From: Stentor roeselii
Lineage: Eukaryota > Ciliophora > Heterotrichea > Heterotrichida > Stentoridae
Assembly: GCA_006503475.1 (NCBI GenBank)
Contig: RSEH01000118.1
Location: 78,140 to 142,139, forward strand
DNA length: 64,000 nt
Reading direction: 5' to 3'
The number at the start of each line of letters is the position of its first letter. The stretch's first letter is position 1. The notes under the pieces were generated by a model. The model was given only the letters and a program-made list of their open reading frames with translations. It ran no database searches and was not told where the DNA came from. Shown piece after piece: positions 3,376-51,124 of the stretch. Both the position numbers and the translations under genes were made by a program.

Positions 3376-4191
3376 ATGAATCACCCTCTAATAGAATCTT
3401 TATTTGAAGCAATCGACACTCATTTAAACAAAAAATCCAAACCGAAACTGGACTTCTTTCTCCAAAACTTAAAAGAAAACTTATTCGAAAACAATAATAA
3501 AGGCAAAAACCTTCAAAACCTTGTGAATTTCCTTTCTTCTCACACTGAAATTTTGATAAACAAATCAGACGGCACCACAACCCAATTACAAGTAGACCAC
3601 TCCATCAAGATTCAACTTCTATTAAAATTATCAGAAGATAAAATGGAAGTTCCAGATCTAAAGCTGCGAAGTCTCAATACAAATCACTCATTTTTTCTAG
3701 ATTTCAAATCCAAGTCATCTACCGAAATCCAAATCAACAATCAAAGTCTAAGATTCATAAAAAAATCAAAAAATTATTTTATTCAAGTTCACATTTCTTC
3801 TAAAAGTGTCTTTCAATGCAGTGAAGATTTCATAATTTATCCTTATTCTTCATTCATAACCAGAGGAGGCATCTTAAGTTTTTACTTTAATGAAAAAAAA
3901 TTAGTTCAAACCCTTGAGCCTCTTTACGACGATTATGCAGACCTGAAGCTCAGCGAAGTTTGGACGACTCAAAAAGTGAGTTCAAAAAACAACCAAATTT
4001 TTGAAGATCTAAAAAAAAATAACTCAAAAGAAGTTTTCTGGCAAATCTCTTCTTTAGACGACGTTTTTATCAAGAAGCTTTTGAGATCTACAGAAGGATG
4101 CCCAGATGGTTTCAGTTTCCCATTAGAACTAAAACACGGAATGATCTTCGACATAGGAAACGAAAACTTCCAGTTAGAATTAAAACAATAA
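3376..4191 (+). CDS. Hypothetical protein, 271 residues
   Basis: A clean frame from ATG to TAA. The N-terminal ~55 residues look helical (MNHPLIESLFEAIDTH..., then Asn/Lys-rich); the rest alternates short hydrophobic and polar runs typical of beta structure and ends in MIFDIGNENFQLELKQ. The end could be the last strand of a small beta-sandwich (an FHA-like fold was considered), but no diagnostic residues are present. There is no signal peptide or membrane helix. Only 62 bp separate its stop from the next gene on the same strand. Function unknown. Confidence 0.75.
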   Translation: MNHPLIESLFEAIDTHLNKKSKPKLDFFLQNLKENLFENNNKGKNLQNLVNFLSSHTEILINKSDGTTTQLQVDHSIKIQLLLKLSEDKMEVPDLKLRSLNTNHSFFLDFKSKSSTEIQINNQSLRFIKKSKNYFIQVHISSKSVFQCSEDFIIYPYSSFITRGGILSFYFNEKKLVQTLEPLYDDYADLKLSEVWTTQKVSSKNNQIFEDLKKNNSKEVFWQISSLDDVFIKKLLRSTEGCPDGFSFPLELKHGMIFDIGNENFQLELKQ

Positions 4192-13369: not shown

Positions 13370-16300
13370 ATGGAAGGTTATAAAATGGACGAACGGTTAC
13401 CTTACCCAATAGAAAACCAGCCGCGTAGTCGTCTGGCTCGAATCGCAGGAAGAGACTCAGAGTTGGCTTCAACGGCAGTGCTTAGTTTGAATTCTGGAGC
13501 CAACTACTCAAAAAACCAGTTCAAATCACTTTATAAGGTCGATCTTAAAAAAGAACTCGAAGAATGGGACCTTCCATTTGCAGCTGCAAGAAACAAGCCC
13601 TCAGGCGCCATCATCAGCAACACGAAACTACCTCCAATTGCGATGGAGGAGACAGGAGAAGAGGATGAGCAACATTCGCCTTTATCACAAGAGTTCGACA
13701 TGCATTCCTTGCAAAAAATGCTGAACAAGTCAAAAAAAACAAGAGGAGGTCTTTCCTCAGGTGCTCAGGAGACTTTATTTGTCGACCGGGAAAGCATGAT
13801 TTTTAAAGAACTGAAAAAAATCATCACAGGTGAAGACGCGATCAGCTTTTTCGCTAAAAACGGGAACACGTCTCCTGTGAAGTTTCTTTATTGCAATAAA
13901 GCAGCGGCTGATGGGAAGGTCTTCAGGCCGTATGACTTGGTCGTAGTGCCGGAGAAAGAGATTCACTCGGAGTACTTCACGATTTCTGCACAAGGAGTCG
14001 TACATGTCATGCCTAAGACGAGTGAAGGGTCTGTGACGACTTTTTACTCTTTGGCTGATTGGATGCATCAGAGCAAATTGTTTAACTTGTTGACTAGCAT
14101 GAATTTGTTTAAAAATTATTTGAATGAAAAGGTATTTTCGCTTTGGAGGGGAAATGTCAGGTATAATCATTATTGTGCTACGAGGAATAAATTGAAAAGA
14201 AGCTTGTTTTTTGCGAAACCTGTTTTTGTTGAGTCTTTGCCGAAGGTGAATGATACGATGTACTCTATGACTTCTACTCATTTACTGGAATTGAATGAAA
14301 AGACACCTTATGAACTTAGCACTTATGTTGATATACAAAAGACTGAAAAAGCTAAAGCGAGGAAAGAGTTCGATCATGCAATGGAAAATCTGAAAAATGA
14401 ATGTGAATCTGTCAAACAGGTTGTTATTGAAAGTGCAAATTTACCTGAAATGGAAGACTTGGATCCTGCCAAACTTGGACAGAGAAATAAAAAAAAATCA
14501 ATGGTTCAACAGAAACTAGAGGAAAAGGAAAGGAAACATAAACTCAAATTGGCGAAGGAACATAAGGAAATGCTTCCTAATTTTGTAAGGCTTATTGATT
14601 ATATGAGCACTGAAACTATTGTTACTCTTATTATTGATCGTACTAGTAAGTTTTTAAAGGCTATTTTGGAAAAGAAGGCTGGAGCGAAGTTGTTTTCTAC
14701 TAGGGTTATGTATGGAAAGGATTGTATGGTGTTTGATCCGAATGAAGAAGAGTTCTTGGAAAGGGTTGATACGATTTTTGAAGGGATCCTGTCAGAAGTC
14801 AACAATGTAACCCGTTTAAGTCAAGGTTTCGAAGAGCTCTTCGGAAACGACCGTTCAAACCTTGCGCAAATCTCCGAAATAGTAAAAGGTTCCGAGGTAT
14901 ACCAAGAGACAATAAAGCGTATAAAAGACAAATTTATCGACGACTTCAAAGAAGCCTACAACTACGCCGAGACCTACTTCGAAAAAGCACGATACGTGAA
15001 TGACTACGTGGCGACTTGGAACTTCGAGGCTTACAAAGCAGAAGGCCACACAGTGCAGCACATAAAAGACGAGTTAAACAAAATAAAAGACTCGATGACA
15101 AAAGACCTAAACAACTACGTCCCTTCGATTCCAAACGCATCAGTCAAAGGAATCCTCAACATTGAAGGAAAAATCATCAAACAACAGCTTCAAACAAGCC
15201 TGGCCAGTGCACAACAGGACCTGAAAAACTACTTAACCGCCATGTCTGCATCGAAAACTGAATCTGCAATGAAAGAACTTGACAATATGATACAAAATCT
15301 CAGTCAACCCCCTACTGCTTTGAAGTCATTCATCAAGTATATGGAAGACTTGAATCAAAGTAAAATTTCTATTCAAAATATTGAAACCTCGAAAGCTGAA
15401 CTTGATGAAATTGAAAGAACTCTTAAACGTGAAAGTAAAGGACATGAATCAACCAATAGTGTTGAAATCATGAAACTTGATGGAAAAATCAAAACTTGCA
15501 AAACTAATATTGACCAGGCTAATGATTATATTGAAAAGAAAAAAGCGGATATGGAAAAAAGACTTGCTGGTCGAGTTGAAAAACTGAAAAGTCAACTTTC
15601 TGATGATTTGCTTAAGAAATTAGATGAAGGGGCTATTGTCTCTGTCGAAGCTCAGCCTATTGAAGCTCTTAATGAATTGAAGAAAATTGAGACTAAATTG
15701 AAAAAATGTGAACAAAATGCCGAGAAGTTTAAACATTATCAGGAAGTTTTCCAAGTTGGCATCACTCGAATCAAAGAACTAGAAGAAACCTCCTACAAGT
15801 TCTCCCGTAAAAACAAGCTCTGGTCTCTACGAAAAGAATACGAAGAGTTCCGCAGCAACTTAGAGCACGCAGACTTCGTAACTCTCGGTCAAGACCTAAA
15901 GAAAAAAGTATCCTACTTCGACAAAGAGTCAGTAAACCTAAAGCTAGAGTTAATGAAAATCTCAAAAGACGGAAAAGACCAAGTAGCCGAGGAGCTTTCA
16001 ATAAAAGTGAAAGAAATCACCAACATGTTACCAGTGATTGAAAATTTAAGCATCGAGGCGATGAAATCACGTCATTGGGTGAAAATTTTCCAGGAACTCG
16101 AAGCAGAAGTTGACTACAGTGAAGGAAAGTTCTTTTGTCTTCAAGAACTCGTCGAATGGGGCGTGATGAACATAAAAGACAAGGTGGAAGAGATCTCTGC
16201 AACAGCCGCTGGGGAGTTTTCCTTAGAAAACACGATAGAAGAGATAAGAAAAGCTTGGGAAGCGACGAATTTCGAGTTGAGCAACTACAGAGAACAAAAA

Positions 16301-19300
16301 GATAAATTTTACCTCACGAAAGTAGAAGATATTCTTACTCAACTTGAAGATCATCAGGTCTCAGTCCAGACCATGCTGAGCAATAGATACGTCGCTGAAA
16401 TCAAGTCTTTCATTGAAGAATGGGACAAAAAACTCAGACTTGTTCAAGACGTGATTGACGAGTGGCTTATTTGCCAGAAGCAGTGGATGTACCTTGAAAA
16501 CATCTTCAGTGCCCCTGATATTCAAAAGCAACTTCCACGAGAAACTACAAAGTTTCAAGGTGTTGACAGGTTCTGGAGAGAACTCATGCTTAGAACTAAT
16601 AAAAACCCTTCGGTCATTGAAGCTTGTGTCTCTGAAGGACTTCTTGATAAGTTTAAGAGGAATAATAAGATCTTGGAGGAGATCAAAAAGTCACTTGATG
16701 AGTACCTTGAAAGTAAAAGACTCGCTTTTCCAAGGTTTTACTTTCTAGCTGATGATGAACTACTTGAAATTCTCAGTCAAACCAGAAACCCTAGAAAAGT
16801 TCAAGACCATTTGAGAAAGTGCTTTGATAATATGGATAAAATCATTTTTGAAGAAGGAAAAGATGCTTTGACTGTCACAGGAATGATCAGTGGTGAGAGA
16901 GAAACTGTTTCTTTCTCGGAGACTGTTGTACCTGAAGGCAATGTCGAGCATTGGCTCACGAAAATAGAGGAAATGATGAAAAAAACTCTTTATGATTGGA
17001 CTAAAAAGGCGCTTCATGAGTATCCAAGGGATGAACTTAAGAGAAGGCACTGGTTTTTTGATATGAATATTCCTGCTCAGTGTATTTTAGTTGTTGATCA
17101 GATTAAATGGACCTTCGGAGCTGCTACTGCTATTGATAACTTAGAACATGCCAGGAATGATAATGCTGTTCATGAATATAATGAATTTCTTAGGCTTCAA
17201 ATAAATGATAGTGTTGGAATCGTTCGAGGAGACTTGACTGGATTGCAAAGAACGCTTATGGGAGCACTTATTACTTTAGATGTTCATGGAAGGGATGTCA
17301 TTGGAAGTCTGGCTGATAAAGGAGTCAAAAGCTTGTGGGACTTTGAGTGGAGTAAACAGCTTAGGTATTACTGGGAGGCTGATGTTGATGACTGCATGGT
17401 CAGACAGACTAATGCGAAGTTTAAGTACTCTTATGAGTACCTTGGAAATGGACCTAGGCTTGTTATCACTCCTTTGACTGATAAGTGCTATCTTACACTT
17501 ACTGGAGCTCTTCATCTCTATTATGGAGGGGCTCCAGCAGGTCCAGCAGGTACAGGAAAGACCGAGACAACAAAAGACCTCGGAAAAGCTCTAGCAATCC
17601 AATGCGTGGTCTTCAACTGTTCAGACGGTCTAGACGTGAACATAATGGCTCGTTTTTTCTCCGGTCTTGCTCAAGCCGGTGCCTGGTCATGTTTCGACGA
17701 GTTCAACCGTATCGACATAGAGGTGTTATCAGTGATAGCCCAGCAGATCCTAACAATCCAGCACGCAGTTCGAAACAATCAAGAAGAATTCGAGTTTTTC
17801 GGGCGAAACATAAAACTTGACAAGCGATTCGGTGTCTTCATCACAATGAATCCAGGTTACGCAGGCCGAACAGAACTTCCTGACAACTTGAAAGCCTTGT
17901 TCCGACCAGTTGCGATGATGATTCCAGATTACGCCATGATCGCTGAAATCATGTTGTTCAGTGAAGGGTTTGAAAAAGCTCGAATCCTTGCAAGGAAAAT
18001 GGTCCAGCTTTACAAACTCGCTTCTGAACAGCTTTCAAAGCAGGACCATTACGACTTCGGAATGAGAGCCGTCAAGTCAGTCCTGGTCATGGCCGGGCAG
18101 CTTAGAAGGAAAAATCCTGACCTTTCTGAAGACGTGGTGCTCATCAGGGCCATGAGAGACTCGAACGTCCCTAAGTTTCTGGAACAGGACTTGCCGTTAT
18201 TCAGAGGAATCATCACTGACTTGTTTCCTTCAGTCACTGTGCCGTTTATTGACTATGGAGACCTGGAGAGAAGCATTAGAGAGCAGCTTGAGAAGAAAGA
18301 GTACCGACCTCTGGATTCTTTCGTGTTGAAGATCATCCAGTTGTTTGAAACGATGCTTGTCAGACATGGAAATATGATTGTCGGCCCAGCTGCTACAGGG
18401 AAGACCACTTTGTATAAAACTCTTGCGGATGCCCTTGGGCAGCTTTTCACGGAAGAAGAAGAAGATGAGACTAGAGTGAAGGACTCCTCACATCAGAAAA
18501 TATTTTACTATCCGCTTAACCCGAAAGCCATCAGCATGGGCGAGTTATACGGGCAGACTAGTCTCACAGGCGACTTCACTGACGGAATCGTTCCTATTCT
18601 TGTTAGAAGTGCAAAGTCGGATAACACCCCCGCGAAAAAGTGGATCGTTTTCGATGGTCCTGTTGATTCTCTGTGGATTGAAAGTATGAACACTGTCCTT
18701 GATGATAATAAAATGCTTTGCTTGACCTCAGGAGAACGTATTAAACTGCCGGATACCATTACTATGCTCTTTGAAGTGCAGGACCTTTCCCAGGCTTCTC
18801 CTGCGACGGTCTCTCGATGTGGCATGGTCTACCTGGACCCGGTTCACCTCGGATGGGAACCTTTGATTGACACCTGGTCAGTCAATTTCAAAAAGCAACT
18901 CGACTCTAAATTGGCAGATCATGTTGTTGAAAATGTGAAAAAATTTATCAAGATTCTCCTGCCCTTTGTAAAATCGGAGTGTAAAGAGGAGATACAGTCA
19001 AGTAGCTCTAATCTTGTCACGTCTTGTCTTAATCTTATTGGAGCCATGGTTAAACAGGAGCTTATTGCTAAGAAAAGACCTGATGATGCGGAAAATTTAA
19101 TCAATTTGTACTTGATCTTTGCGTTTACTTGGTCTTTAGGAGCGAATTTGAATGACTCTTCGAGAGCAGCTTTTGATAAGAAGCTTCGAACGGAGATTGA
19201 GGTGATTTATCGTCATTTTCCTTACTCGAATACAGTTTTTGATTATTGTATTGATGATGATATGTGTGAGTTTGTTCCGTGGGAGACTCGAGTGCCTACG

Positions 19301-22300
19301 TTTAACTACAACAGCAAACAGCCTTACTTCACAATTTTAGTACCAACCGTAGACACGGTCCGAAATCGTTTCGTTTTAGAAGTGCTCGCTAAAAAGTCTC
19401 ACCACATCCTCTTCACCGGTAACACAGGTGTCGGTAAAACCGTAGTAATAAAAGACTACCTAGCAATGGGTGGTAGCGACTGGTTCGTCTCAACAGTAAT
19501 CAACTGTTCAGCCCAAACTTCGACTCAAAACATAAACGACGTCTTCGAAGACAAACTCGAAGCTCCCCGTAAAAAGATCAGAAGACCTCCTCCAGGTAAA
19601 AAAATGATAATGTTCATCGATGACGTCAACATGCCTGCCCTTGACTTGTTCGGCTCGCAGCCGCCCGTCGAGCTTCTTCGTCAAATAATCGAAGCCGGGT
19701 TCTACGACTTAAAAAACTACTTCTTTAAAAACGTCGAAGACGTCATTTTCGTCGCCGCTTGTGCACCTCCTGGAGGCGGCAGAAATCAGGTCAGTCCTAG
19801 ATTTTTCAGACATTTTAACATGATTTGGCAGGTTCAGCTTTCTCAAGGGTCCATGGAAGCTATTTTTTCTTCGATTTTAAGAGGGTTCCTTGATGAGCAC
19901 CCTGATGAGAACTTGTCGGAATATGCTGACCCGATTGTTAAGACTTCAGTTGAAACTTATACAAAAATTTGTAATGATTTGCTGCCTACTCCGAGTAAGT
20001 CTCATTATACTTTTAACTTGAGGGACTTGAGTAAGGTTGTGCAAGGAATGCTTATGGTCACTTATGAAAATTTGAGAGGACTTAATACTTTGTTGTTGCT
20101 TTGGCTGCATGAATGCTGTAGGGTCTTTCGTGATCGACTTATTGATGATAAAGATCGCAATTGGTTCAATGATGAATTGGAAAGGAAAATGAAGATGAAT
20201 ATTAATACTGATCTTACTAAAGATAAGTGGGTTGATGTCATTTTTGGAGATTTTATGAGTGGGCCTTATAAGGATTATATCAGGATTGAGTATAATGATA
20301 AGTTGTTTGATCAGCTTGCTATGTCGCTTGAACAGTATAACTCGGAGTATAATCGCATGAATTTAGTCTTTTTCAAGGATGCTATCAATCACCTAACCCG
20401 AGTATGCAGAATACTGAAACAACCTCGTGGAAACGCCTTACTCGTAGGTGTGGGAGGAAGCGGTCGTCAAAGTCTAGCCCGTTTAGCAGTATGCATGGCA
20501 GGTCAAAAGCCAAGATCAATCGAAATAACAAGAATCTACGGAGTGATCCAATTCCGCGAGGACCTAAAAAACCTTTTAAAGCAAGCAGGAGCGCAAGGTG
20601 AAAAAATCGCCTTCATCTTCTCCGACACCCAAATCGTGAAAGAAAGTTTTCTTGAAGACATAAACAACATCTTAAACACAGGAGAAGTGCCGAACCTTTA
20701 CGAAATCGCAGACATGGAAGAAATAATTAACAATGTTCGAGATTTAGCAAGGTCCGCAGGCAAGCCCGACACAAAAGACGCGATTTTCCAGCATTACGTG
20801 CAACAATGTCGAGATAACCTTCACATAATCCTTGCTTTCAGTCCAGTGGGCGAGCAGTTCCGAGTGAGATGCCGTCAGTTCCCGTCAATAGTAAACTGTT
20901 GCACTTTAGACTGGTACAGCGCGTGGCCGAAAGACGCTCTTTTTTCAGTCGCTCAGAGATTTTTCAATGAAAATGAACATCTGGGGATTAAGGACCTGAA
21001 GGAGCAGCTTTGCAATATTTGCGTCGAGATTCACTTCTCAGTGACGAAAAAGTCGAAAGACTTTGAACTTGAATTGAGAAGGAAAAATTATACAACTCCT
21101 ACTTCTTACTTGGAACTTATTAAACTGTACCTTGATATGCTCACCATTCAACAGAAGAAAGTACCTGAACAGATCAATAAATACGTCACGGGACTTAAAA
21201 GACTCAAAGAAACTAATGAAATGGTCTCACAGATGCAAGTCACTCAGGCGGAACTTAAGGTTAAACTTGTTAAAAGCTCTGAAGATAATGCGAAACTTCT
21301 GGTTGATCTTCAGGTCAAACAAGCAGATGCTAAAGTCAAAGAAGAAGCTTGTGCTAAAGATGAAGCCGAATGCTCTGCTACTATGAAAGAAGTCACTGAA
21401 ATTAAAAATGAATGTCAACAGGACTTGGATGAAGCTCTTCCTGCTTTGAATGCGGCGAATAAAGCTCTGCAGTCTTTGAATAAAAATGATATTGTTGAAG
21501 TTAAAAGTTATACTAAACCTCCTCCTGCTGTTGAAATGGTCATGAATGCTGTTTGTTTGCTTATGAAGGAAAAACAAACTTGGGATCAGGGAAAGAAACT
21601 ACTGGGTGATATGAACTTCTTGCAAAATTGCATGAACTTTCCTAAAGATGATATTTCTAATCAAACTTTGAGGAAACTTCAGACGTATATTTCGAATCCT
21701 GATTTTAATAAAGATGTTGTTGCTGGAGTCTCTAAAGCCGCAGGTTCTCTCTGCGAATGGGTGGTAGCCATGGACAAATACGCAAAAATCTCTCGAAACA
21801 TCGAGCCAAAAAGAAACCGTTTACAACAAGCAGAATCCAACCTAAAAGTAGTTCAAGATCAACTAAACGAAAAGCAAAGTGCCCTTCGAGCAATTCAAAA
21901 CGAAGTAGCAGAATTAGAAGCGACATTCCAAGCAAGTGTAAAAAAAGGTGAAGAACTTCGCAAGAGCAGTGAACTAACCGAGCAGCGTCTAATAAGAGCA
22001 GAAAAACTAGTAAGTGGTTTAAGCAGTGAAAGTAAAAGATGGGCTGAAAGCGCGAAACTTTTAGAAGGTGACCTTAAGAACCTAGTAGGAAACATCATGC
22101 TTGCTGCAGGGTTCGTGGCTTACCTGGGGCCATTTACTTTAAACTACCGAAACAGTTTAATGGAAGGTTGGGTCTCCTTCGCTCGAAGCCAAAGAGTGCC
22201 AGTTAATCCAGTCTTTTCGGCTGAAAGGATTCTGGCAGACCCTGTCGAAGTCCGAGAATGGACACTTGCAGGACTTCCAGCAGATCAGCTCTCAGTGGAC

Positions 22301-25300
22301 AACGCAATCATCGTCACTCAAGGACGCAGGTGGCCACTTATCATCGACCCACAAGGCCAGGCAAATAAGTGGGTCAAGACAATGGACCGAGAAACTTTAA
22401 AAGTGATAAAACTCACTGATTCAAATTTCTTGAAAATATTGGAAAATGGAATTAGGTATGGAAATCCAATCTTATTGGAAAATGTTGAAGAAAAACTTGA
22501 TCCTAGCATTGATCCGGTACTTTTAAAGAATTTAACGAAAAAAGCAGGAGGGTTCTTTTTGAGACTTGGAGATACGGAAGTGCCTTATAGTAACGACTTC
22601 CGGTTTTATATCACTACGAAATTGTCTAATCCTCATTATTTACCTGAAATTTGTATTAAAGTCACTATCATCAACTTCACTGTCACTCCTCAGGGCTTGG
22701 AAGACCAGCTCTTGGTCGATGTGGTCAAAGCTGAAAAACCTCAACTAGAAGAAATGAAGAATAAGTTGATTGTTCAGATTTCAAGTGATAAAGATATGCT
22801 TCAGGAGCTGGAAGATAAGATATTGACTATGATTTCAAAGGCTAGTGGAGATATCTTAGATGATGAAGTACTTATTGAAACACTTGGAGCTAGTAAAAAG
22901 ACCAGCGAAGTTATTCATGTTCGAATGGCTGAAGCTGAAGAAACTTCGAAAAATATTAATGCGGCTCGTGAAGAGTATAGAACTGTTGCTACTCGCGGGT
23001 CGATTCTTTACTTTGTGGTTGCTGATATGGGACTTGTTGATCCTATGTATCAGTATTCTTTGGATTTCTTTAGCAAACTGTTTAACTTGCGACTGTTAAA
23101 GTCACAGAAAAGTGATGATTTAAATACTCGACTTGATATTCTTGTTGAAGATATTACTAGAAGCTTTTACTTTAATATTTGTAGGGGACTGTTTGAAAAA
23201 GATAAACTTTTGTACTCGTTTTTAAATGCTGTTAGGATTTCTTTGAAGAAAGAACGAGTTAGTGTGAAAGAGTGGAGTTTCTTCTTAAAGGGTTCAGACG
23301 AATACGACGGAGAGCCATTCTCCGCATCAGGTTTACACCTAGACGGTATGACATGGGGAGCCTTAAAAGCCCTAGAAGACTTAAACGAGAACTTCATCGG
23401 TCTTCCTCATTCAATCGAAACCCTATCCGAAAAATGGCGAGCTCTTCTTCATTCCGACGACATTTTCAAAGAGCGTCTTCCAAGTCCATACGAAGGAGCC
23501 CTGACAAGTTTCCAAAAGTTAATCTTAGGTTCAATCCTCCGTCCAGAGAAGTTAATGCTCGGCCTTCGAATGTTCGTCGGGCGAGAACTCGGCCAAGTCT
23601 TCGTCGAGTCTCCTCCATTCGACTTGAAAGGTGCCTTTGAAGACTCAGTGAGTACCAGTCCAATAATTTTCATTCTGAGTCCAGGAGCAGATCCAATAAG
23701 CGACCTTTTAAAACTTGCGAAAGAATACGAAATGGACTCTCGCTTTAGAATGCTCAGTCTCGGGCAGGGCCAAGGAAAACTCGCTGAAAAATATATCGAC
23801 AATGGAAGAAGAAATGGAGATTGGGTCTGTCTTCAGAACTGTCATCTGGCAGCCTCTTGGATGGGCGACTTGGAAAGAATTCAAGAGCAGCAAGTGGAAG
23901 GCGACATTCACCCTGAATATAGAATTTGGCTTACTTCAATGCCAAGTAGCAAGTTTCCAGTACCTGTTCTTCAAAGTGGAGTAAAATTAACTAACGAGCC
24001 GCCGAAAGGACTGAAGGCAAATTTGGGAAGGACCTTTCAAGACGTGACTCCTGAGAACTATGAAGGGTGCTCGAAGGTCTTTGAGTATAAAAGAATGCTT
24101 TTTGCTCTTGCTTTCTTCCATGCAGTTATTTTAGAAAGGAGGAAATTCGGAGCTATTGGGTGGAATATTCCTTATGAGTGGATGACAAGTGACTTCGTCA
24201 CTTCCAAATCACAACTTTTCATGTATCTCAATGAACATGCGGTAACACCTTATGGAACTTTGAAAGTCCTCGTCGCTGAAATCAACTACGGCGGGCGAGT
24301 CACTGACGATAAAGACGTTCGACTGATAACCGCCTTACTCGACAGGTACTTCACGCCAGACGTCATGACAGAAGACTTCAGCTTTTCAAACAACGAGACT
24401 TACAAGCCTCCAAAAGGAATGACCCTTGACGACATGAAAGACTACATCAAAGGACTTCCCCTCGAAGACGATCCTGAGCTGTTCGGCCTTCATTCAAACG
24501 CGAACATCACGTTCAACAAAAAAACAGTCTACGAGTTCCGAGAAGCCATTTCTCTTATTCACCCTCGAGTCAGCGGGGGGTCAGCCGGGAAGAGTTCAGA
24601 CGACATGGTGAACGAAATCGCGAAGGACATCGAAGAACGCCTACCAAAGCCGATGAACACACAAAAAGAAGCCCATCCTGAAACTTTCTCCAAAAATGAA
24701 TTCGGCGCAATGAACTCTTTGGGAGTCTTCGTGGGTCAAGAAATTTACAGATTCAACAAACTTCTGGTCGTGATGCGTAACTCATTAGTCCAACTGCAGA
24801 AAGCGATTCGAGGTGATGTCGTCATGGGTCAGGAGCTGGAAAGGATGTATTCTTGCTTCCTTAATCAAAAAGTCCCCAAGAACTGGTCAGACCAAGCTTA
24901 TCCTTCATTGAAACCTTTGGGCTCCTGGGTAAAGGACTTGATTTTAAGAGTTGAGTTCATCGCGTCTTGGCTCACGCAAGGCCCGAGGCCGACTTACTGG
25001 TTGTCAGCGTTTTTCTTCCCGCAGGGGTTCATGACTGCTGCACTTCAGATGTACGCCAGGCAGACCCAGACGCCGATCGACACTTTGAAGTTCAGGACTG
25101 AAGTACTGCCCAAGACTCACCATCAAATCAAGGACATGCCGAGCAAAGGGGTGAATATTCATGGACTCTTCATGCAAGGCGCTCGGTGGGACCTGCACCG
25201 AAATAGAATTGATGAAAGCGAGCCTGGCTCGCTTTTTATTGAAATGCCAGTCGTTTGGCTTGACCCTGTCCCAACTGAGCAGAAGCCAGATGGACTTATG

Positions 25301-25459
25301 TACCCGGCACCTCTTTACAAGACATCTTTAAGGGCAGGAGAACTCAGCACCACTGGACACTCGACGAATTTTGTCCTTTTCTTTGAACTTCCTACAACGC
25401 AACAGGCGGTTCATTGGATTAGAAGAGGAGTGGCTTTGCTTTGCCAACTTGATGATTAA
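13370..25459 (+). CDS. Inner-arm axonemal dynein heavy chain (DNAH3/7/12-like)
   Basis: 4029 residues in a single exon. The N-terminal ~1150 residues are tail and coiled coil, followed by the linker (about 1150-1360, with VDRFWRELM). Six AAA modules follow. P-loops are AAA1 GPAGTGKT at ~1391, AAA2 GPAATGKT at ~1672, AAA3 GNTGVGKT at ~2017 and AAA4 GVGGSGRQS at ~2360. AAA1 carries the Walker B-like CFDEFNRI. The stalk coiled coils and microtubule-binding tip lie at about 2600-2900 (PPPAVEMVMNAVCLLM near the tip). The C-terminal cap ends in HWIRRGVALLCQLDD, typical of single-headed inner-arm dyneins, and the length matches that group. It hydrolyses ATP to drive microtubule sliding in cilia. AAA4 has Arg at the usual Lys of the P-loop motif, as I recall for this clade. 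Confidence 0.97.
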   Translation: MEGYKMDERLPYPIENQPRSRLARIAGRDSELASTAVLSLNSGANYSKNQFKSLYKVDLKKELEEWDLPFAAARNKPSGAIISNTKLPPIAMEETGEEDEQHSPLSQEFDMHSLQKMLNKSKKTRGGLSSGAQETLFVDRESMIFKELKKIITGEDAISFFAKNGNTSPVKFLYCNKAAADGKVFRPYDLVVVPEKEIHSEYFTISAQGVVHVMPKTSEGSVTTFYSLADWMHQSKLFNLLTSMNLFKNYLNEKVFSLWRGNVRYNHYCATRNKLKRSLFFAKPVFVESLPKVNDTMYSMTSTHLLELNEKTPYELSTYVDIQKTEKAKARKEFDHAMENLKNECESVKQVVIESANLPEMEDLDPAKLGQRNKKKSMVQQKLEEKERKHKLKLAKEHKEMLPNFVRLIDYMSTETIVTLIIDRTSKFLKAILEKKAGAKLFSTRVMYGKDCMVFDPNEEEFLERVDTIFEGILSEVNNVTRLSQGFEELFGNDRSNLAQISEIVKGSEVYQETIKRIKDKFIDDFKEAYNYAETYFEKARYVNDYVATWNFEAYKAEGHTVQHIKDELNKIKDSMTKDLNNYVPSIPNASVKGILNIEGKIIKQQLQTSLASAQQDLKNYLTAMSASKTESAMKELDNMIQNLSQPPTALKSFIKYMEDLNQSKISIQNIETSKAELDEIERTLKRESKGHESTNSVEIMKLDGKIKTCKTNIDQANDYIEKKKADMEKRLAGRVEKLKSQLSDDLLKKLDEGAIVSVEAQPIEALNELKKIETKLKKCEQNAEKFKHYQEVFQVGITRIKELEETSYKFSRKNKLWSLRKEYEEFRSNLEHADFVTLGQDLKKKVSYFDKESVNLKLELMKISKDGKDQVAEELSIKVKEITNMLPVIENLSIEAMKSRHWVKIFQELEAEVDYSEGKFFCLQELVEWGVMNIKDKVEEISATAAGEFSLENTIEEIRKAWEATNFELSNYREQKDKFYLTKVEDILTQLEDHQVSVQTMLSNRYVAEIKSFIEEWDKKLRLVQDVIDEWLICQKQWMYLENIFSAPDIQKQLPRETTKFQGVDRFWRELMLRTNKNPSVIEACVSEGLLDKFKRNNKILEEIKKSLDEYLESKRLAFPRFYFLADDELLEILSQTRNPRKVQDHLRKCFDNMDKIIFEEGKDALTVTGMISGERETVSFSETVVPEGNVEHWLTKIEEMMKKTLYDWTKKALHEYPRDELKRRHWFFDMNIPAQCILVVDQIKWTFGAATAIDNLEHARNDNAVHEYNEFLRLQINDSVGIVRGDLTGLQRTLMGALITLDVHGRDVIGSLADKGVKSLWDFEWSKQLRYYWEADVDDCMVRQTNAKFKYSYEYLGNGPRLVITPLTDKCYLTLTGALHLYYGGAPAGPAGTGKTETTKDLGKALAIQCVVFNCSDGLDVNIMARFFSGLAQAGAWSCFDEFNRIDIEVLSVIAQQILTIQHAVRNNQEEFEFFGRNIKLDKRFGVFITMNPGYAGRTELPDNLKALFRPVAMMIPDYAMIAEIMLFSEGFEKARILARKMVQLYKLASEQLSKQDHYDFGMRAVKSVLVMAGQLRRKNPDLSEDVVLIRAMRDSNVPKFLEQDLPLFRGIITDLFPSVTVPFIDYGDLERSIREQLEKKEYRPLDSFVLKIIQLFETMLVRHGNMIVGPAATGKTTLYKTLADALGQLFTEEEEDETRVKDSSHQKIFYYPLNPKAISMGELYGQTSLTGDFTDGIVPILVRSAKSDNTPAKKWIVFDGPVDSLWIESMNTVLDDNKMLCLTSGERIKLPDTITMLFEVQDLSQASPATVSRCGMVYLDPVHLGWEPLIDTWSVNFKKQLDSKLADHVVENVKKFIKILLPFVKSECKEEIQSSSSNLVTSCLNLIGAMVKQELIAKKRPDDAENLINLYLIFAFTWSLGANLNDSSRAAFDKKLRTEIEVIYRHFPYSNTVFDYCIDDDMCEFVPWETRVPTFNYNSKQPYFTILVPTVDTVRNRFVLEVLAKKSHHILFTGNTGVGKTVVIKDYLAMGGSDWFVSTVINCSAQTSTQNINDVFEDKLEAPRKKIRRPPPGKKMIMFIDDVNMPALDLFGSQPPVELLRQIIEAGFYDLKNYFFKNVEDVIFVAACAPPGGGRNQVSPRFFRHFNMIWQVQLSQGSMEAIFSSILRGFLDEHPDENLSEYADPIVKTSVETYTKICNDLLPTPSKSHYTFNLRDLSKVVQGMLMVTYENLRGLNTLLLLWLHECCRVFRDRLIDDKDRNWFNDELERKMKMNINTDLTKDKWVDVIFGDFMSGPYKDYIRIEYNDKLFDQLAMSLEQYNSEYNRMNLVFFKDAINHLTRVCRILKQPRGNALLVGVGGSGRQSLARLAVCMAGQKPRSIEITRIYGVIQFREDLKNLLKQAGAQGEKIAFIFSDTQIVKESFLEDINNILNTGEVPNLYEIADMEEIINNVRDLARSAGKPDTKDAIFQHYVQQCRDNLHIILAFSPVGEQFRVRCRQFPSIVNCCTLDWYSAWPKDALFSVAQRFFNENEHLGIKDLKEQLCNICVEIHFSVTKKSKDFELELRRKNYTTPTSYLELIKLYLDMLTIQQKKVPEQINKYVTGLKRLKETNEMVSQMQVTQAELKVKLVKSSEDNAKLLVDLQVKQADAKVKEEACAKDEAECSATMKEVTEIKNECQQDLDEALPALNAANKALQSLNKNDIVEVKSYTKPPPAVEMVMNAVCLLMKEKQTWDQGKKLLGDMNFLQNCMNFPKDDISNQTLRKLQTYISNPDFNKDVVAGVSKAAGSLCEWVVAMDKYAKISRNIEPKRNRLQQAESNLKVVQDQLNEKQSALRAIQNEVAELEATFQASVKKGEELRKSSELTEQRLIRAEKLVSGLSSESKRWAESAKLLEGDLKNLVGNIMLAAGFVAYLGPFTLNYRNSLMEGWVSFARSQRVPVNPVFSAERILADPVEVREWTLAGLPADQLSVDNAIIVTQGRRWPLIIDPQGQANKWVKTMDRETLKVIKLTDSNFLKILENGIRYGNPILLENVEEKLDPSIDPVLLKNLTKKAGGFFLRLGDTEVPYSNDFRFYITTKLSNPHYLPEICIKVTIINFTVTPQGLEDQLLVDVVKAEKPQLEEMKNKLIVQISSDKDMLQELEDKILTMISKASGDILDDEVLIETLGASKKTSEVIHVRMAEAEETSKNINAAREEYRTVATRGSILYFVVADMGLVDPMYQYSLDFFSKLFNLRLLKSQKSDDLNTRLDILVEDITRSFYFNICRGLFEKDKLLYSFLNAVRISLKKERVSVKEWSFFLKGSDEYDGEPFSASGLHLDGMTWGALKALEDLNENFIGLPHSIETLSEKWRALLHSDDIFKERLPSPYEGALTSFQKLILGSILRPEKLMLGLRMFVGRELGQVFVESPPFDLKGAFEDSVSTSPIIFILSPGADPISDLLKLAKEYEMDSRFRMLSLGQGQGKLAEKYIDNGRRNGDWVCLQNCHLAASWMGDLERIQEQQVEGDIHPEYRIWLTSMPSSKFPVPVLQSGVKLTNEPPKGLKANLGRTFQDVTPENYEGCSKVFEYKRMLFALAFFHAVILERRKFGAIGWNIPYEWMTSDFVTSKSQLFMYLNEHAVTPYGTLKVLVAEINYGGRVTDDKDVRLITALLDRYFTPDVMTEDFSFSNNETYKPPKGMTLDDMKDYIKGLPLEDDPELFGLHSNANITFNKKTVYEFREAISLIHPRVSGGSAGKSSDDMVNEIAKDIEERLPKPMNTQKEAHPETFSKNEFGAMNSLGVFVGQEIYRFNKLLVVMRNSLVQLQKAIRGDVVMGQELERMYSCFLNQKVPKNWSDQAYPSLKPLGSWVKDLILRVEFIASWLTQGPRPTYWLSAFFFPQGFMTAALQMYARQTQTPIDTLKFRTEVLPKTHHQIKDMPSKGVNIHGLFMQGARWDLHRNRIDESEPGSLFIEMPVVWLDPVPTEQKPDGLMYPAPLYKTSLRAGELSTTGHSTNFVLFFELPTTQQAVHWIRRGVALLCQLDD

Positions 25460-26678: not shown

Positions 26679-27877
26679 ATTGATAATTTGGAAGAGCTCA
26701 GAGAAAGGATTGAAAGATTAGAGAAGGTTATACTAGATAGAAAACTTGAAGGGGTATTCATTGAATGCCAAAGAAAATTTGATTATTGATGTTTACATTT
26801 GATAATGATTTATTATTTTTAGAGATGTGAGGTTATTTATTGAATAATTTTCAAAAATAAGGAAATTGAGTTGGATCGTTTTAGTGATATGAAAGATATT
26901 TAAGTATTATGCAGTAAATGCAGGCTTCAATTTGATAGGAAGATCTATCAAATAAAAAAAAAACTCTTCTATGATACTCATATTAAATAAAAGATTTAGA
27001 TTAGATTTGAATTAAAAATAATAGATATAGAGTTACAGTTCCAATACTATCCTATATATTTTATGAAGAAAATTAAATTTATTCTTTGTGCTCTTTTAGG
27101 CGAGGGCAAGTATATTAGCTATGACTATGGACTTCTTTAATTGGTGTGTTAAATAAAATGATATTGAACTATTCTTACAAGATTTAATTCCAGATGATTC
27201 GATAATTTTCAGTCTTAAAGGAAAAATATTTGTGAACAGAAGATTGTGATTAATTTGAAAATAAAAAGCCCATTATATGAATATAGTAACCTAGTAAATG
27301 GATAAAAAGAATTTAGATATAATTTCTATGTAGATCAATCAGATAAATTATCAGAGCAGAGGAATATATATTAAAATATTTAGGATATTTATATTTAGTT
27401 GTATTTAGTTATGAATTTATTAAATCATAAAATATGTCTTTAATACATTCTTCTCTGCTAGCGAGTTAAATTCGATGTTTAGTATAAAATATTGGTATTT
27501 TCATGGTTCAAAGATGTATATTGTTCACTTAAATTTGATCACAATATTAATAATAGAACAAAAGATAAAATTTTTATAATGGAATTATAATTTTTAAATC
27601 TTTATTTCATCTTGAAAAACATTAATTTTATGATTATACATTTCATGTTCAAATCGATATTCTAATGATATTTATCAAAATCCATCTCCACCAGCTCATT
27701 AATATTTTACAATCAACAAACTTCTGCCAAAAATCCCAAAAAAAAAAAAAATCTTGTCAATAATTTCAATTTCAAATTATTCTTCTAGAACATTTTACAT
27801 ATGAAAATTTCCTTCCCTCATATTTCCTAAGTTTGAGTCATCACCACCCCTTTTACATCATTGATATAAAAACCTAA
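26679..27877. other. Gene-free AT-rich stretch (1.2 kb)
   Basis: Stop-dense in all frames. The first ~250 bases are C-poor on the plus strand, matching the 5' flank of the leftward CSN1 gene. An oligo-A run lies near 27729-27741. No RNA gene, repeat or hidden spliced gene was seen. The last ~150 bases turn C-rich ahead of the zinc-finger frame. Confidence 0.6.
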
Positions 27878-28306
27878 TTAATAAAATCCTATAATATTAA
27901 ACTGCTCCAACCAAGAACCAGCAACAAGCCCGAGTACAAGTGTTATTACGAAGACTGTCAAAAATACTTCCAAAATAAAATTTACTTAGTGACCCACATC
28001 AACTCCCAGCATCTTCACGTGCCAGTCTACAGCTGCGTCCTTTGTGAAACTTTCTTCAATTCTTCTGATGACTATTTCGCGCACATGAGAAGTCATGCAA
28101 AGAAACCCATCAAAAGTACTTCTGCAATCCTTTCTAAAGTAACATTAGAACCCTCAATCGATAACTTGCCAACAAGCATCACATCGCTACCAACACTTCC
28201 AGGTATCGAAAGTGACCGAAGAAGATTCGCATTTGGCTACAAGATTCCCTTATCAGTCAAAATCTTTGAAATCCTGTCAACGCAAATAGGATCAGGAAGA
28301 AACTAA
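27878..28306 (+). CDS. Two-finger C2H2 zinc-finger frame, start unclear (possibly a broken gene)
   Basis: An open frame of 142 codons encodes two C2H2 fingers in tandem: CYYEDC, twelve residues, H-x3-H; then CVLC, twelve residues, H-x3-H, ending AHMRSH. The match to the zinc ligands is complete in both. However, no in-frame ATG precedes finger 1. The frame is preceded by TAA at 27875, and no 15-nt GT...AG intron could remove that stop, since there is no GT between ~27835 and the GAGTAC just before finger 1. It could be a gene with a longer 5' intron, a non-AUG start, a sequence error, or a decayed copy. The tail after the fingers is Ser/Thr-rich. A nucleic-acid-binding role is the family default. 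Confidence 0.55.
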   Translation, partial: LIKSYNIKLLQPRTSNKPEYKCYYEDCQKYFQNKIYLVTHINSQHLHVPVYSCVLCETFFNSSDDYFAHMRSHAKKPIKSTSAILSKVTLEPSIDNLPTSITSLPTLPGIESDRRRFAFGYKIPLSVKIFEILSTQIGSGRN

Positions 28307-47866: not shown

Positions 47867-48586
47867 ATGGAAAACCAACTCCATACTCCAATTTCAAAAT
47901 TTTCACATTCAAGTAAATCAGAGTCTCGTCCGAACCGAACTCCACTATCAGAGCTAAACCCATTCACCCAGCGTTTATCTCTAACACCTCTAACCAAACA
48001 AGAGCTCTCAAAGCCGACCTACTTCGGTTTCAGCCACCTTGAAACCCAAAGCCAAAAGAAATCCTCTCGAATTCCTTTAGAACTTTTGATAAACCCAAAA
48101 AAATCCTGTTCAAAACACATGAACCAAGTTCTAACCTCACTTCGTTCAAAGTCCAGTAAAAGTATTCTAAAAAATTCTTCTCAGCCTTCTCAGAAAAATG
48201 TTCATTTTGGCGACTCAGTTCAAAATTCTGAAAGAAAATCAGAAAACAAGACTCAAAGCCTTGCAACAACAAACAACTCAGTGACTGAAAGTCGCTTAGA
48301 GGTGAATGAAGAAGAAAAAAATGAGTTTAAATATGAAGAAGACTTGAAAGCGAGTGTCTTGTTTCAGGAATTTGATGAGTACCCCACTGTTGTATTTTGT
48401 AGACAGTGTAAAAGGGAAAATGTTACAGTTGTTTCGCTTGAAAAGGTCAGACCGGAAGCTGGGGTTTTTGCTTTGATGGTTTGGGGAATTTGCTGGTGTT
48501 TGCCGGCTTGCTTTTATCATGAGACTCAGCTTGTTCATAAGTGTTCATTTTGCTTTGGAGAAATCGCAAGGTTTAATAGTGCTTAA
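47867..48586 (+). CDS. LITAF-domain membrane-associated protein
   Basis: 239 residues. The first ~160 residues are Ser/Lys/Asn-rich and probably disordered. The C-terminal LITAF/SIMPLE domain has split zinc ligands C178-x2-C181 (VVFCRQC) and C226-x2-C229 (HKCSFC), with the typical hydrophobic hairpin between them (GVFALMVWGICWCLPACFYHET), which inserts into the cytosolic leaflet of endosomal membranes. LITAF proteins act in endosome and lysosome trafficking. The domain is complete; the long N-terminal extension holds the PSAP-type or other binding sites in other members, but no PPxY or PSAP is seen here. Confidence 0.88.
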   Translation: MENQLHTPISKFSHSSKSESRPNRTPLSELNPFTQRLSLTPLTKQELSKPTYFGFSHLETQSQKKSSRIPLELLINPKKSCSKHMNQVLTSLRSKSSKSILKNSSQPSQKNVHFGDSVQNSERKSENKTQSLATTNNSVTESRLEVNEEEKNEFKYEEDLKASVLFQEFDEYPTVVFCRQCKRENVTVVSLEKVRPEAGVFALMVWGICWCLPACFYHETQLVHKCSFCFGEIARFNSA

Positions 48587-51124
48587 TCGTTTTTGGATGG
48601 GGAAGGTTAAGGTTAAATAAACTTTGGAATTATGTTATGGTTTTATTTGGTTTATATTTTGAATCTCTTTTCTTGAATCTGGATTTAATGAGGTTTTTGT
48701 TTAGGATATATTTAGAATGGTTTTTGTGATTTGAATAGTTTTGATGATAGAATTATTTTGGTGCTCAACTCTGAAGAATGAAAATCTGAAAGTTTGAATA
48801 TGTCAAGATTTTTAAAGGAGAATATTGTAAAATATGATCAAAGCAGTGAATGTTCAAAACGTCCTAAAACTAATGAAAATCTGTTTAAATTTTACTGCAA
48901 CAAACCTGAAATCAAACTTCTCTAAACCTGTCCGAATCTCTTGAAATTTAACCCTAATAAAGAAAAAAAATGAAAAGCAACCTTAATAAAACATCTAGAA
49001 ATCAACTTAAAATAATCATTTTCTAAATAATAATCTGAAATACTTTCAATTTTCTGACTCCTTACCTTCTCCCTATTTCCACAACGAAAAACGTGAAAAA
49101 TTCGCAACAATTCAACAGAATAAAATATCCTTCATTAACGAAAACGAAATTCAATCAATTTTGAAGTCGAGAAATCGCTTCAGTAAATTTTAAATCGAAA
49201 GCTTTAAAGTTGGAATTTGTTGTTGATTTTGACGGACCCATGAATATGTAGAAGGTTTCATGAAAACTAACGTCGTATAGGGCTAAATAGAGTAAAGCTG
49301 AACCGAATTCAAAAAGCTATAAAAAGAGTAAGGTTTTATGTAAAAACTCGAATATACAGCGAACCTTGTGCCTTTTTGAATCAGTTTTTTAATTTTAAAT
49401 CCAAATCAGGTTCGTTGATTTCATTTATTTTACATCTTTCAAGAAAGTTTTAATTTAAAGTGGTTTAAAGGAGAAGCTTTGTTTAGAGATCTTAAGTTCT
49501 TAGGAAGTTGAATTATTTAAAGTTTTTTACTTTTTTATCAAAATATTCATCAATATTAGCTGAATACAACAATGAGAGGATTTGACTCAATGATTGAAAA
49601 TTTTAAGTAATTCATTTAAATCAATGTGATTTTTATATCAAAATTTATTGAAATTGAAACCTTAAATATTTTCCTTGAACATATTCTACTTTGAATTATA
49701 AATCCTTCTTCACATTCGCAAAGAAACTATTTTTTCGTGAATTTTCAGATCAATTCAACAAACTGAGTGATTTTCAGATGTTTCGCATAAATCTGGGAAT
49801 TTTTCACATGAAGAAGCTAAAATCATTTTTAAGTCATTTCTGGCATATTCCAGAAAGTAACTAATAACCTTATCCATTTCAAGCAAAGAATGGAGCTTGG
49901 TAGAACTGACAGTGAAGGTCTTTGACAAACGGCACATGCTGACTCTTTGATGCAGCTGTTTTGAAGAAAATCAGGATTGATTCAAATAGGCTAAGACAAT
50001 TATCTAGAAAATGAAGACCCAGTCCTTTTTGCTGAGCTTTAGAGAGATTAAAGTTAATAACCAAAGTTTAATGAAACATTTGTGTGGGGTAGTTGAGATC
50101 AGAAAATTAAATATTATGGATTCAACCTTCACTTTGGCTGTAGATGCATACCTTTAAAATAAAATCATGACTCTTTTAATCTCATTGAAATAGTAATATT
50201 TTGCTGACTAGTCAAAATAAGAAAAGATTTTAGCCTTAACCACAAAGATCATTTCAGGTTCAAAAGGCTTGAAAACAATTGAGAAGAAGAAAGTCGGAGT
50301 GATAGCTCAACAATTTGATAATCTCAAGTTGCTGGTGTTCATTAAGAAAAATTCACTGGATTTTGTTGGGATTGAAGTCACTTTTGAATTTTGTTATAGT
50401 GGCGAATGACCCAATTAATTTTAATTAAGCATCTGGATGTTAAAAATTGTGGGTAAAGATATTTTTTGGAATTTGAACAAAGATTGTTTATTGATTGAAA
50501 CCGTCTGGATATTGATTAAGACCACTAATTTATTGAAGTGAAGAAGGAATTGAAGTATGTGTTTTAGGGATCATTCAAACAGAATAGATTTGAAGCGCCG
50601 AAGTTTAGAAAGAAGATTTTGAGGATTCTACGCATATGTATGATAGTAAAATATACAAGATGATTACCTTATTTAATCAGATGAATAGTTTTGCTATAAG
50701 ATAGGAATTTACCAAAAAAATAACAAGATCAATCAATCAATGAACTGAATAAAAATAATAGAAAGTCTAAATTTCAAACATAAATTAGAGATTATTAATC
50801 TCAATTGAGCATCTTCATTAATAACCCCAAATACGCAAGCTACTTTAAATCTAACTCCCTATTAAAAACTAGCCAAATTTTATAAATAACAAAGATTCAA
50901 AATTCTGCAAATGACTGATAATCGATTCAAAAACTCCTCCACTCCAAATCCAAATCCATATAATTTCATATAAAAAATTTCCAAATCCTCCCAACCCATC
51001 TAAACTCCAAAACCACCCAAACCCTCTTCACTCCATCCTCTCCTAACCCATCCCTTCCAAATCTACCCAAATCCCTAAACTATCCCAAAACCCTCTAAAA
51101 TCCAAAAGCTGTTAATCATAAATC
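48587..51124. other. Largest gene-free stretch (2.5 kb)
   Basis: The left end (48590-48830) is G/T-rich and C-poor; the right end is C/A-rich and culminates in a G-free run. Open runs of about 60 codons occur on both strands (near 49020-49190, 49755-50064 and 50213-50404), but they lack ATG or clash in frame, and about that many are expected by chance at this base composition. No tRNA, rRNA, repeat or known transposon signature was recognised. Confidence 0.6.
50925..51107 (+). other. 183-nt G-free (C/A/T-only) tract upstream of the FHA/RING gene
   Basis: From the G at 50924 to the G at 51108 no guanine occurs on the plus strand; the tract is rich in CCAAAT, CTCC and CCCAAA-like words. It ends 17 bp before the ATG at 51125 and is the extreme case of the G-poor 5' flanks seen at other genes. 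It may be a promoter or 5'-UTR feature, or a mutational signature. Confidence 0.75.

What the first reader, a model, noticed from the sequence alone, without database searches (positions are those of the whole stretch)
13370..25459. Sawtooth synonymous-site composition inside the dynein gene
Seen in sequence: long stretches using T-ending codons (GAT, AAT, TTT) switch abruptly to C-ending codons (GAC, AAC, TTC), then drift back over 1-1.8 kb. By eye, resets fall near 14805, 15765, 17535, 19300, 20390, 21735, 23270 and 24210. Hand counts: 20281-20340 has C7/T21, 20521-20580 has C13/T12; 23101-23160 has C7/T20, 23281-23340 has C16/T15. The resets have the direction of the change seen at gene starts, so they may mark internal transcription starts, pausing, nucleosome phasing or another strand-asymmetric process. 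Some resets sit just before P-loop codons (AAA1, AAA3, AAA4). I know of no described cause.
Basis: partly seen in the sequence, partly recalled or inferred. Interest (0 to 1): 0.8.

Follow-up and report, generated by a model that had tools for sequence, protein, structure and literature searches.

The report
DNA strand-polarity sawtooth in ciliate genome
In this ciliate's working genome the base make-up of the two DNA strands swaps abruptly every one to two thousand letters and then fades back, through genes and between them, which looks like a lasting trace of something that keeps happening to the DNA at fixed points.

Summary
The sawtooth is real and far above chance: 146 change points at silent sites in 12 long ORFs, against 0, 0, 0, 0, 1 and 0 in six codon-shuffled sets. 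A three-state model finds a one-way cycle A/C-rich -> mixed -> T/G-rich -> abrupt reset; transitions HM 79, ML 89, LH 73, LM 9, MH 1, HL 0.

It is not codon choice. The extreme states are reverse complements context by context (r = 0.93 over 16 contexts). The asymmetry also runs into adjacent non-coding DNA (60 nt: r = 0.64 and 0.48; control 0.16 and 0.10). So it is a strand asymmetry of the DNA that flips at points, reaches about 0.6-0.8 kb to each side, depends little on the spacing of points on its A/C-rich side, and is sharp to a codon or two. No motif, TA or palindrome was found.

The assembly carries CCCTAACA telomeres, the heterotrich ciliate type. The strand whose 3' end faces a point has lost A and C for G and T, as if repeatedly single-stranded. 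My best guess, not shown: fixed germline break or elimination points.

The parts
13370..25459 (+). dynein heavy chain ORF (4029 aa) in which the sawtooth was reported
   Evidence: PDB matches to axonemal dynein heavy chains, DHC6 among the best
14012..14785 (+). T/G-rich (L) stretch left of polarity switch 1
   Evidence: Viterbi L 214-472
14786..15118 (+). polarity switch 1 at 14786 and the A/C-rich (H) plateau after it
   Evidence: Viterbi H 472-583; nucleotide model 14792, posterior 1.0
15749..16036 (+). polarity switch 2 at 15749 and H plateau
   Evidence: Viterbi H 793-889; 15758
17534..17872 (+). polarity switch 3 at 17534 and H plateau; two codons before the AAA1 P-loop, same codon as in two paralogues
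   Evidence: Viterbi H 1388-1501; alignment column 2274 shared by C101, C45 and the window gene; 17531
19304..19516 (+). polarity switch 4 at 19304 and H plateau
   Evidence: Viterbi H 1978-2049; 19304
20390..20725 (+). polarity switch 5 at 20390 and H plateau
   Evidence: Viterbi H 2340-2452; 20375
21734..22096 (+). polarity switch 6 at 21734 and H plateau
   Evidence: Viterbi H 2788-2909; 21740
23264..23554 (+). polarity switch 7 at 23264 and H plateau
   Evidence: Viterbi H 3298-3395; 23264
54714..60869 (+). second long ORF (2051 aa, ubiquitin carboxyl-terminal hydrolase domain) with the same sawtooth; switches at 57393 and 59985
   Evidence: domain; Viterbi resets at codons 893 and 1757; 57405 and 59976
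27200..28200 (.). mostly non-coding DNA with a likely switch near 27600: C-G skew of 100-nt windows goes from -0.47..-0.11 to +0.50..+0.71
   Evidence: by eye; the nucleotide model did not call it at posterior 0.5
48500..49200 (.). likely switch near 48900, from a gene 3' end into non-coding DNA (C-G skew -0.62 to +0.45 and +0.63)
   Evidence: by eye; not called at posterior 0.5
50400..51300 (.). switch near 50700 in non-coding DNA (C-G skew -0.38 to +0.57..+1.00); a C-rich tandem repeat at 50980-51035 adds to it
   Evidence: 50708 with posterior 0.54; repeat

Best explanation
SHOWN: the sawtooth is a strand asymmetry of the DNA itself that flips at discrete points. To the left of a point the + strand is G/T-rich, to the right it is A/C-rich; since a reverse complement of this is the same thing, gene orientation does not matter. 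The asymmetry decays over about 0.6-0.8 kb to each side, and between distant points the DNA is near neutral. By composition, on both sides it is the strand whose 3' end faces the point that has T for C and G for A. INFERRED: that strand is recurrently exposed as single-stranded DNA and deaminates (C to U, A to hypoxanthine), as 3' tails do when the 5' ends of a break are resected. The points would be fixed break or break-prone sites in the germline nucleus. MORE SPECULATIVE: they are sharp and have no motif because the actual source, a germline-limited element of IES type, lies between the two sides in the micronucleus and has been removed from the macronuclear DNA sequenced here.
For: Reverse-complement relation of the two states by neighbour context: r = 0.91 for L C/(C+T) against H G/(A+G), 0.86 for the other pairing, 0.93 for the H-L differences; 16 contexts, none of 10000 permutations as high; the middle state is near its own reverse complement. 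Continuation into non-coding flanks never used in fitting the states; C-G variance in non-coding DNA is 5.8 times and A-T variance 2.6 times the iid expectation in 153 windows. Limited range: H length 101, 114, 130, 118 codons in quartiles of interval length 271, 433, 665, 961; M takes up most of the rest (slope 0.75; 55 intervals). Two-sided decay: C/(C+T) 0.15 at the left edge rising to about 0.42 by 275 codons, 0.69 at the right edge falling to about 0.45 by 200 codons. From neutral to L, T over C is up in 16 of 16 contexts and G over A in 13 of 16. Sharpness: 72 switches fit a 0.3-codon width best, with the likelihood profile of a simulated perfect step. Ciliate macronucleus: telomere repeat, 271 forward and 389 reverse matches, 0 for the reversed control. 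A Spo11-family gene is present. Density 0.73 per kb over 264 kb (193 expected switches), of the order of Blepharisma's 39,799 IESs on 41 Mb (passages of PMC9942856).
Against: No germline sequence was seen. The junctions carry no TA (16.2 weighted hits against 22.1 background), whereas three quarters of Blepharisma IESs are TA-bound. No PiggyBac-domain match in the genome, but the controls rang nowhere either, so this says nothing. No near-identical, interrupted copy of the gene among the 45 listed matches in the assembly (the gene's own place is not listed there either). Chromosome ends, also borders of eliminated DNA, do not start with a clear A/C-rich state: 13 subtelomeres, mostly non-coding, show only a weak C (0.150 against G 0.108) and A (0.387 against T 0.355) excess in the first 200 nt. 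The range is not wholly independent of spacing: L length grows with the interval (105, 212, 240, 281 codons by quartile; rho 0.69) and H weakly (rho 0.30). L and H lengths at the same switch do not correlate (rho -0.03, n = 73). Indels are not raised at junctions. The reverse-complement symmetry is not exact: pyrimidines differ by 2.6 logits, purines by 1.7. In context G_T the direction of change is reversed, and the purine share at fourfold sites changes too (0.53 in H, 0.38 in L), so simple deamination is not the whole story. Continuity across gene-gene borders was not seen. Elimination itself happens in the new macronucleus and is not inherited, so a germline mutational source must be assumed.
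Confidence: 0.35

Rival explanations
1. Replication polarity: each switch is a very local replication start (or a fixed fork meeting point), and the two strands mutate differently.
For: Abrupt jump, slow return and reverse-complement symmetry are the known form of origin skew domains; [quoted passage not shown] L length grows with the interval.
Against: H length hardly grows with the interval and M fills the middle; sharpness to a codon or two; one switch per about 1.4 kb, whereas Tetrahymena has about one origin per 15 kb (passage of PMC5182062). If the lagging template is what deaminates, an origin would give the opposite sign.
Confidence: 0.2
2. Transcription: short outward or inward transcripts, R-loops or termination zones at the switches expose one strand.
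For: Switch density is highest just after stop codons (2.18 and 2.12 per kb in 0-150 nt) and above the coding level upstream of ATG (0.8-1.3 against 0.65 per kb). Gene ends are L-rich (0.58 against 0.35 overall) and starts mildly H-rich (0.32 against 0.19). A small gene-oriented residue exists in the neutral state: C share exceeds its counterpart in 15 of 16 contexts.
Against: 150 of 193 expected switches lie in coding DNA; no motif; the step is sharp to a codon or two; outward transcription with an exposed non-template strand predicts the opposite sign.
Confidence: 0.15
3. Selection on the DNA sequence itself (chromatin, packaging or protein tracking) keeps a strand polarity around fixed points.
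For: Very strong bias (C share 0.97 against 0.09 in context A_A) and strong context dependence, more than usual for mutational skews (recalled).
Against: No motif found at the points; positions largely unshared between paralogues.
Confidence: 0.12
4. Codon choice for translation speed, tRNA supply or co-translational folding.
For: Amino-acid composition changes little between H and L (chi-square 36.9 on 19 degrees of freedom, P = 0.008), and a few switches sit at P-loops. Seven of 55 paralogue pairs have similar profiles at z 2.0 or more.
Against: Same asymmetry in non-coding flanks; the two codon regimes are near reverse complements; mean r between paralogue profiles is 0.07 over 55 pairs.
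Confidence: 0.02

Closest known systems
Replication skew domains (human N-domains; origin skew jumps in Saccharomyces cerevisiae and Kluyveromyces lactis)
   Same: Abrupt skew jump, slow return, no link to gene direction, seen at third positions and between genes; yeast leading strand A/C-rich (passages of PMC3459929).
   Different: Spacing about 1.4-2 kb; asymmetric range of 0.6-0.8 kb with near-neutral DNA in longer intervals; steps sharp to a codon or two; a far stronger bias (the comparison with usual skews is recalled).
Internal eliminated sequences of ciliates (Blepharisma, Paramecium)
   Same: Ciliate macronucleus with CCCTAACA telomeres; many points inside genes; density of the same order as in Blepharisma.
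   Different: No eliminated DNA seen; no TA at the points; no strand asymmetry at IES borders in the passages and listings seen.
Mutagenesis at meiotic breaks (human hotspots; abstract start of PMC7615360 in the listing)
   Same: Strand-biased changes would be expected on resected 3' tails to both sides of a break (my expectation); a Spo11-family gene is present.
   Different: Here the points are sharp to a codon or two and silent sites are near saturation; meiotic breaks in this species are unmapped.
Purine skew near telomeres of single-gene macronuclear chromosomes (Nyctotherus, passages of PMC2633312)
   Same: Strand asymmetry that is symmetric when read inward from both ends.
   Different: Purine/pyrimidine, within about 130 nt of the telomere; here amino/keto, 0.6-0.8 kb, inside chromosomes, and at most weak at the 13 chromosome ends tested.

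Membership tests
Replication-origin skew domain | abrupt jump of skew with slow return, reverse-complement symmetric | tested here: met
Replication-origin skew domain | asymmetry spans the interval between origins and scales with it | tested here: not met
   H slope 0.04 and M slope 0.75 of interval length; L slope 0.21 grows in part; 55 intervals
Replication-origin skew domain | coincidence with mapped origins | not testable with these tools
   no replication data
Ciliate IES junction | macronuclear genome of a ciliate with nuclear dimorphism | tested here: met
Ciliate IES junction | germline-limited DNA present between the two sides in the micronucleus | not testable with these tools
   no micronuclear sequence; no near-identical interrupted copy among 45 listed matches
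Ciliate IES junction | TA or other terminal direct repeat at the junction (most Blepharisma IESs) | tested here: not met
   TA 16.2 against 22.1 background in the 6-nt junction interval, 72 switches; longer repeats not tested
Ciliate IES junction | domesticated PiggyBac excisase in the genome | tested here: inconclusive
   PF13843 no match, but controls rang in 0 of 14; DDE_3 no match, controls rang in 3 of 14
Transcription-start skew | asymmetry oriented by gene direction and peaking at gene starts | tested here: not met
   state pair is near reverse-complement symmetric; switch density highest after stop codons
Break and resection mutagenesis | C>T (and A>G) on the strand whose 3' end faces the break, limited range on both sides | tested here: inconclusive
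   composition agrees, but the direction of substitution is inferred, without an outgroup
Break and resection mutagenesis | physical breaks at these points | not testable with these tools
   no break mapping
Translational codon selection | restricted to coding codons | tested here: not met
   non-coding flanks carry it

The most novel reading that the evidence does not exclude
The macronuclear DNA of this ciliate carries a codon-sharp fossil map of tens of thousands of fixed germline points (extrapolated from 0.73 per kb in the 264 kb examined), probably sites of eliminated DNA or programmed breaks, written in strand polarity. The germline's cut or break sites could then be read from the somatic genome alone.
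Probability: 0.3. Interest if true: 0.92.

Novelty: new variant of a known kind. Interest (0 to 1): 0.8.

Why it matters
Strand skews are normally faint and spread over many kilobases (recalled). Here one nuclear genome has skew domains a thousand bases wide with edges sharp to a codon or two and near-saturated silent sites. Whatever causes them acts at fixed places long enough to rewrite silent positions, then moves: two paralogue pairs at 61-62% identity have profile correlations of -0.05 and 0.00. If the points are germline elimination or break sites, a somatic assembly would suffice to map them, and the range of the asymmetry would measure how far the DNA is opened. It also warns against reading codon-usage shifts inside ciliate genes as translational signals.

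Tried and rejected
Codon-level causes: avoidance of stops in another frame looked possible because T before A or G is rare in H and frame +2 stops are depleted there (207 against 412), but T is avoided before A whatever follows (0.03-0.06), and frame +1 stops are enriched (977 against 756). tRNA or queuosine effects were dropped. Six tubulin genes do not prefer the H codons, so H is not simply the optimal set.

Conservation with protein structure: 55 paralogue pairs, mean r 0.07, mean z 0.47, 7 pairs at z 2.0 or more, the 75%-identical pair r = 0.34. Coincidences of resets within 2 columns 5 against 2.5 expected (67 of 500 shuffles as high), within 40 columns 46 against 37.9 (33 of 500). Conservation in the 8 codons after a switch is slightly raised, 0.391 against 0.343 +- 0.023.

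Continuity across gene-gene borders: hand-picked cases looked continuous, but for 18 tandem borders with gaps up to 60 nt r = 0.06, 0.11 and -0.03 (windows of 25, 40 and 60 codons), and for 9 opposite-strand borders 0.14, 0.16 and -0.05; within-gene windows 50 nt apart give 0.50. I explain this by the excess of switches at gene borders, but it is a result against me. Non-coding flanks gave the positive result; it weakens with flank length (250 nt: 3' r = 0.26, P = 0.19; 5' r = 0.42, P = 0.015; controls 0.20 and 0.27) and A-T skew alone is weak (0.30 and 0.21 at 60 nt).

DNA-end model: predicted H at chromosome ends, not clearly seen. Motifs of 5-7 nt within 20 codons of 72 switches: best z about 4-5 among thousands of words, none frequent. 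Parabasalid origin, my first idea, was dropped: ribosomal protein L3 matched entry 5xxb (Toxoplasma, recalled) best, and I recognised no Trichomonas ribosome among the 60 rows shown. No confirmed relative of a 1033-aa dynein piece in viral contigs.

Full report
WHAT IS THERE. The window is the end of contig C24 (78140-142139) of a 44.4 Mb, 522-contig assembly. Over 264 kb (the window plus ten 20-kb stretches around other dynein genes) 88 ATG-started ORFs of at least 120 codons cover 87% of the DNA. Eleven dynein heavy chain ORFs of 4016-4622 codons, out of 24 dynein places in the genome, and one ORF of 2051 codons run without TAA, TAG or TGA, with 740 TGG codons; so TGA is not read as tryptophan here. 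Blepharisma itself reads TGA as tryptophan, so this is another species of that kind. The name is not known.

THE OBSERVATION. The hand counts (three of four exactly, the fourth off by one T) and seven of eight reset positions hold. Change points on silent-site choice number 146 over 12 ORFs against 0,0,0,0,1,0 in six shuffled sets. A three-state synonymous-codon model converges to the same likelihood from three seeds. The path is a one-way cycle: H (A/C-ending) to M to L (T/G-ending) and back by an abrupt jump; counts HM 79, ML 89, LH 73, LM 9, MH 1, HL 0. On one shuffled set the same model gains 130 log units instead of 3284 and its transitions show no cycle. States were fitted and decoded on the same 12 ORFs. 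Third-position composition at 74 resets changes from A 0.19 C 0.09 G 0.28 T 0.44 in the last five codons to A 0.38 C 0.36 G 0.12 T 0.14 in the first five.

DNA, NOT CODONS. Amino-acid composition differs little between H and L (chi-square 36.9 on 19 degrees of freedom, P = 0.008, for 26,276 codons; serine the largest change). The share of C among silent pyrimidines in each context of previous and next base in L follows the share of G among silent purines in the reverse-complement context in H: for example 0.09 and 0.11, 0.25 and 0.23, 0.03 and 0.03, 0.49 and 0.47, the worst being 0.13 and 0.33; r = 0.91 over 16 contexts. The H-L differences agree with r = 0.93, and no permutation of 10,000 does as well. 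The symmetry is not exact: pyrimidines differ by 2.6 logits and purines by 1.7 on average, and in the near-neutral state M the C share exceeds its counterpart in 15 of 16 contexts. A codon-level cause has no reason to give reverse complements; a DNA-level cause does. Independently, the skew of non-coding DNA next to genes, never used in fitting the states, follows the silent-site state of the adjacent 30 codons in gene orientation: r = 0.64 (59 3' flanks) and 0.48 (62 5' flanks) for 60 nt, against 0.16 and 0.10 for codons 100-150 away; it weakens with flank length. Flips are visible by eye in non-coding DNA near 27600, 48900 and 50700, of which the nucleotide model calls only the last, at 0.54. 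Because L|H is its own reverse complement, genes on either strand show the same direction, which is why the pattern seemed to follow transcription.

GEOMETRY. Among 55 complete intervals (483-3672 nt, median 546 codons) the H stretch stays near 115 codons (rho 0.30 with interval length), M takes up most of the rest (slope 0.75), and L grows in part (105 to 281 codons). The asymmetry fades over about 275 codons to the left and about 200 to the right. The switch is as sharp as a simulated perfect step: for 72 switches a width of 4 codons is worse by 104 log units, and a simulated step gives 101, a simulated 2-codon width 71. No word of 5-7 nt, no TA and no palindrome marks it. A combined model over coding and non-coding DNA expects 193 switches in 264 kb: 0.65 per kb in coding and 1.31 in non-coding DNA, highest in the 150 nt after stop codons. 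The window has 35 with summed posterior over 0.5. Positions differ between most paralogues, including pairs at 61% and 62% identity (r -0.05 and 0.00); a pair at 75% identity has r = 0.34. Three of 11 dyneins share a switch at exactly the same AAA1 P-loop codon.

WHAT IT LOOKS LIKE. From neutral to L, T gains on C in 16 of 16 contexts and G gains on A in 13 of 16; from neutral to H, G loses to A in 15 of 16 and T loses to C in 12 of 16. So on each side it is the strand whose 3' end faces the point that carries keto in place of amino bases, the pattern expected of deamination in single-stranded DNA (recalled, known from mitochondrial DNA). A break with resected 5' ends exposes exactly these strands over some hundred bases (recalled). 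A range that depends little on spacing argues against forks that run until they meet. Sharpness without a motif suggests that whatever lies at the point is no longer in the sequence, as at joints of macronuclear DNA after elimination of germline DNA. Blepharisma has 39,799 such segments on 41 Mb, about 70% inside genes (passages of PMC9942856). A Spo11-family gene is present. All of this is inference. No germline sequence, break map or mutation data were available, the TA of most known IESs is missing, and chromosome ends show the state at most weakly.

PRIOR WORK. Searches (2 listed of 2; 20 of 150; 20 of 39; 12 of 348; 15 of 18; 15 of 433; 15 of 567) listed no title that describes a kilobase sawtooth of strand composition in a ciliate or other nuclear genome. 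Beyond the listings I saw only passages of PMC9942806, PMC9942856, PMC2633312, PMC5182062 and PMC3459929. The nearest is the skew jump at yeast origins, with A/C-rich leading strands.

VERDICT. The reading as internal transcription is unlikely. I am nearly certain that it is a DNA-level strand polarity that flips at points, and I hold the germline-break or elimination reading at about one in three. The facts mended on checking (L growing in part with spacing, imperfect symmetry) did not require a change of odds.

Noticed in passing
L036:1186-2340 (G000:C316): Single match for the Spo11/topoisomerase VI-A family in the genome, a 384-codon GTG-started open frame that matches Topo VI-A chains and a solved SPO11 chain.
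   Followed up: partly
L031 (G000:C220:63253-63882): A tubulin gene (gamma-tubulin by its N-terminus, recalled) shows a clear reset: C share of pyrimidine-ending codons 21/27, 18/32, 5/31, 3/38, 7/36, then 23/31 and 20/29 per 60 codons.
   Followed up: no
G000:C350:23560-23874, G000:C364:21891-22235: Tubulin fragments with in-frame stops and short frames, unlike the many intact tubulin genes; pseudogenes or germline-derived contigs are possible.
   Followed up: no
window 13370-25459 and ten other dynein ORFs: Eleven dynein genes of 12-14 kb without any interruption, although Blepharisma and Stentor (title of a paper in its reference list) are known for tiny introns.
   Followed up: no
window 63025-63939: Minus-strand open frame at the contig end; on the + strand the last kb has a GC skew of -0.41, the strongest of the 64 one-kb windows, with two switches called at 63028 and 63649.
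   Followed up: no
alignment column 2274 (window 17534; C101 codon 1551; C45 codon 1466): Three of 11 dynein paralogues at 36-38% identity switch polarity at the identical AAA1 P-loop codon, and a fourth (C44) 13 columns before it.
   Followed up: partly
L-state stretches of the 12 long ORFs, e.g. window 14012-14785: In T/G-rich stretches the words GACTTG, AACTTG and ACTTGA are 2.3 to 3.1 times commoner than in codon-shuffled copies, a neighbour effect not explained.
   Followed up: no
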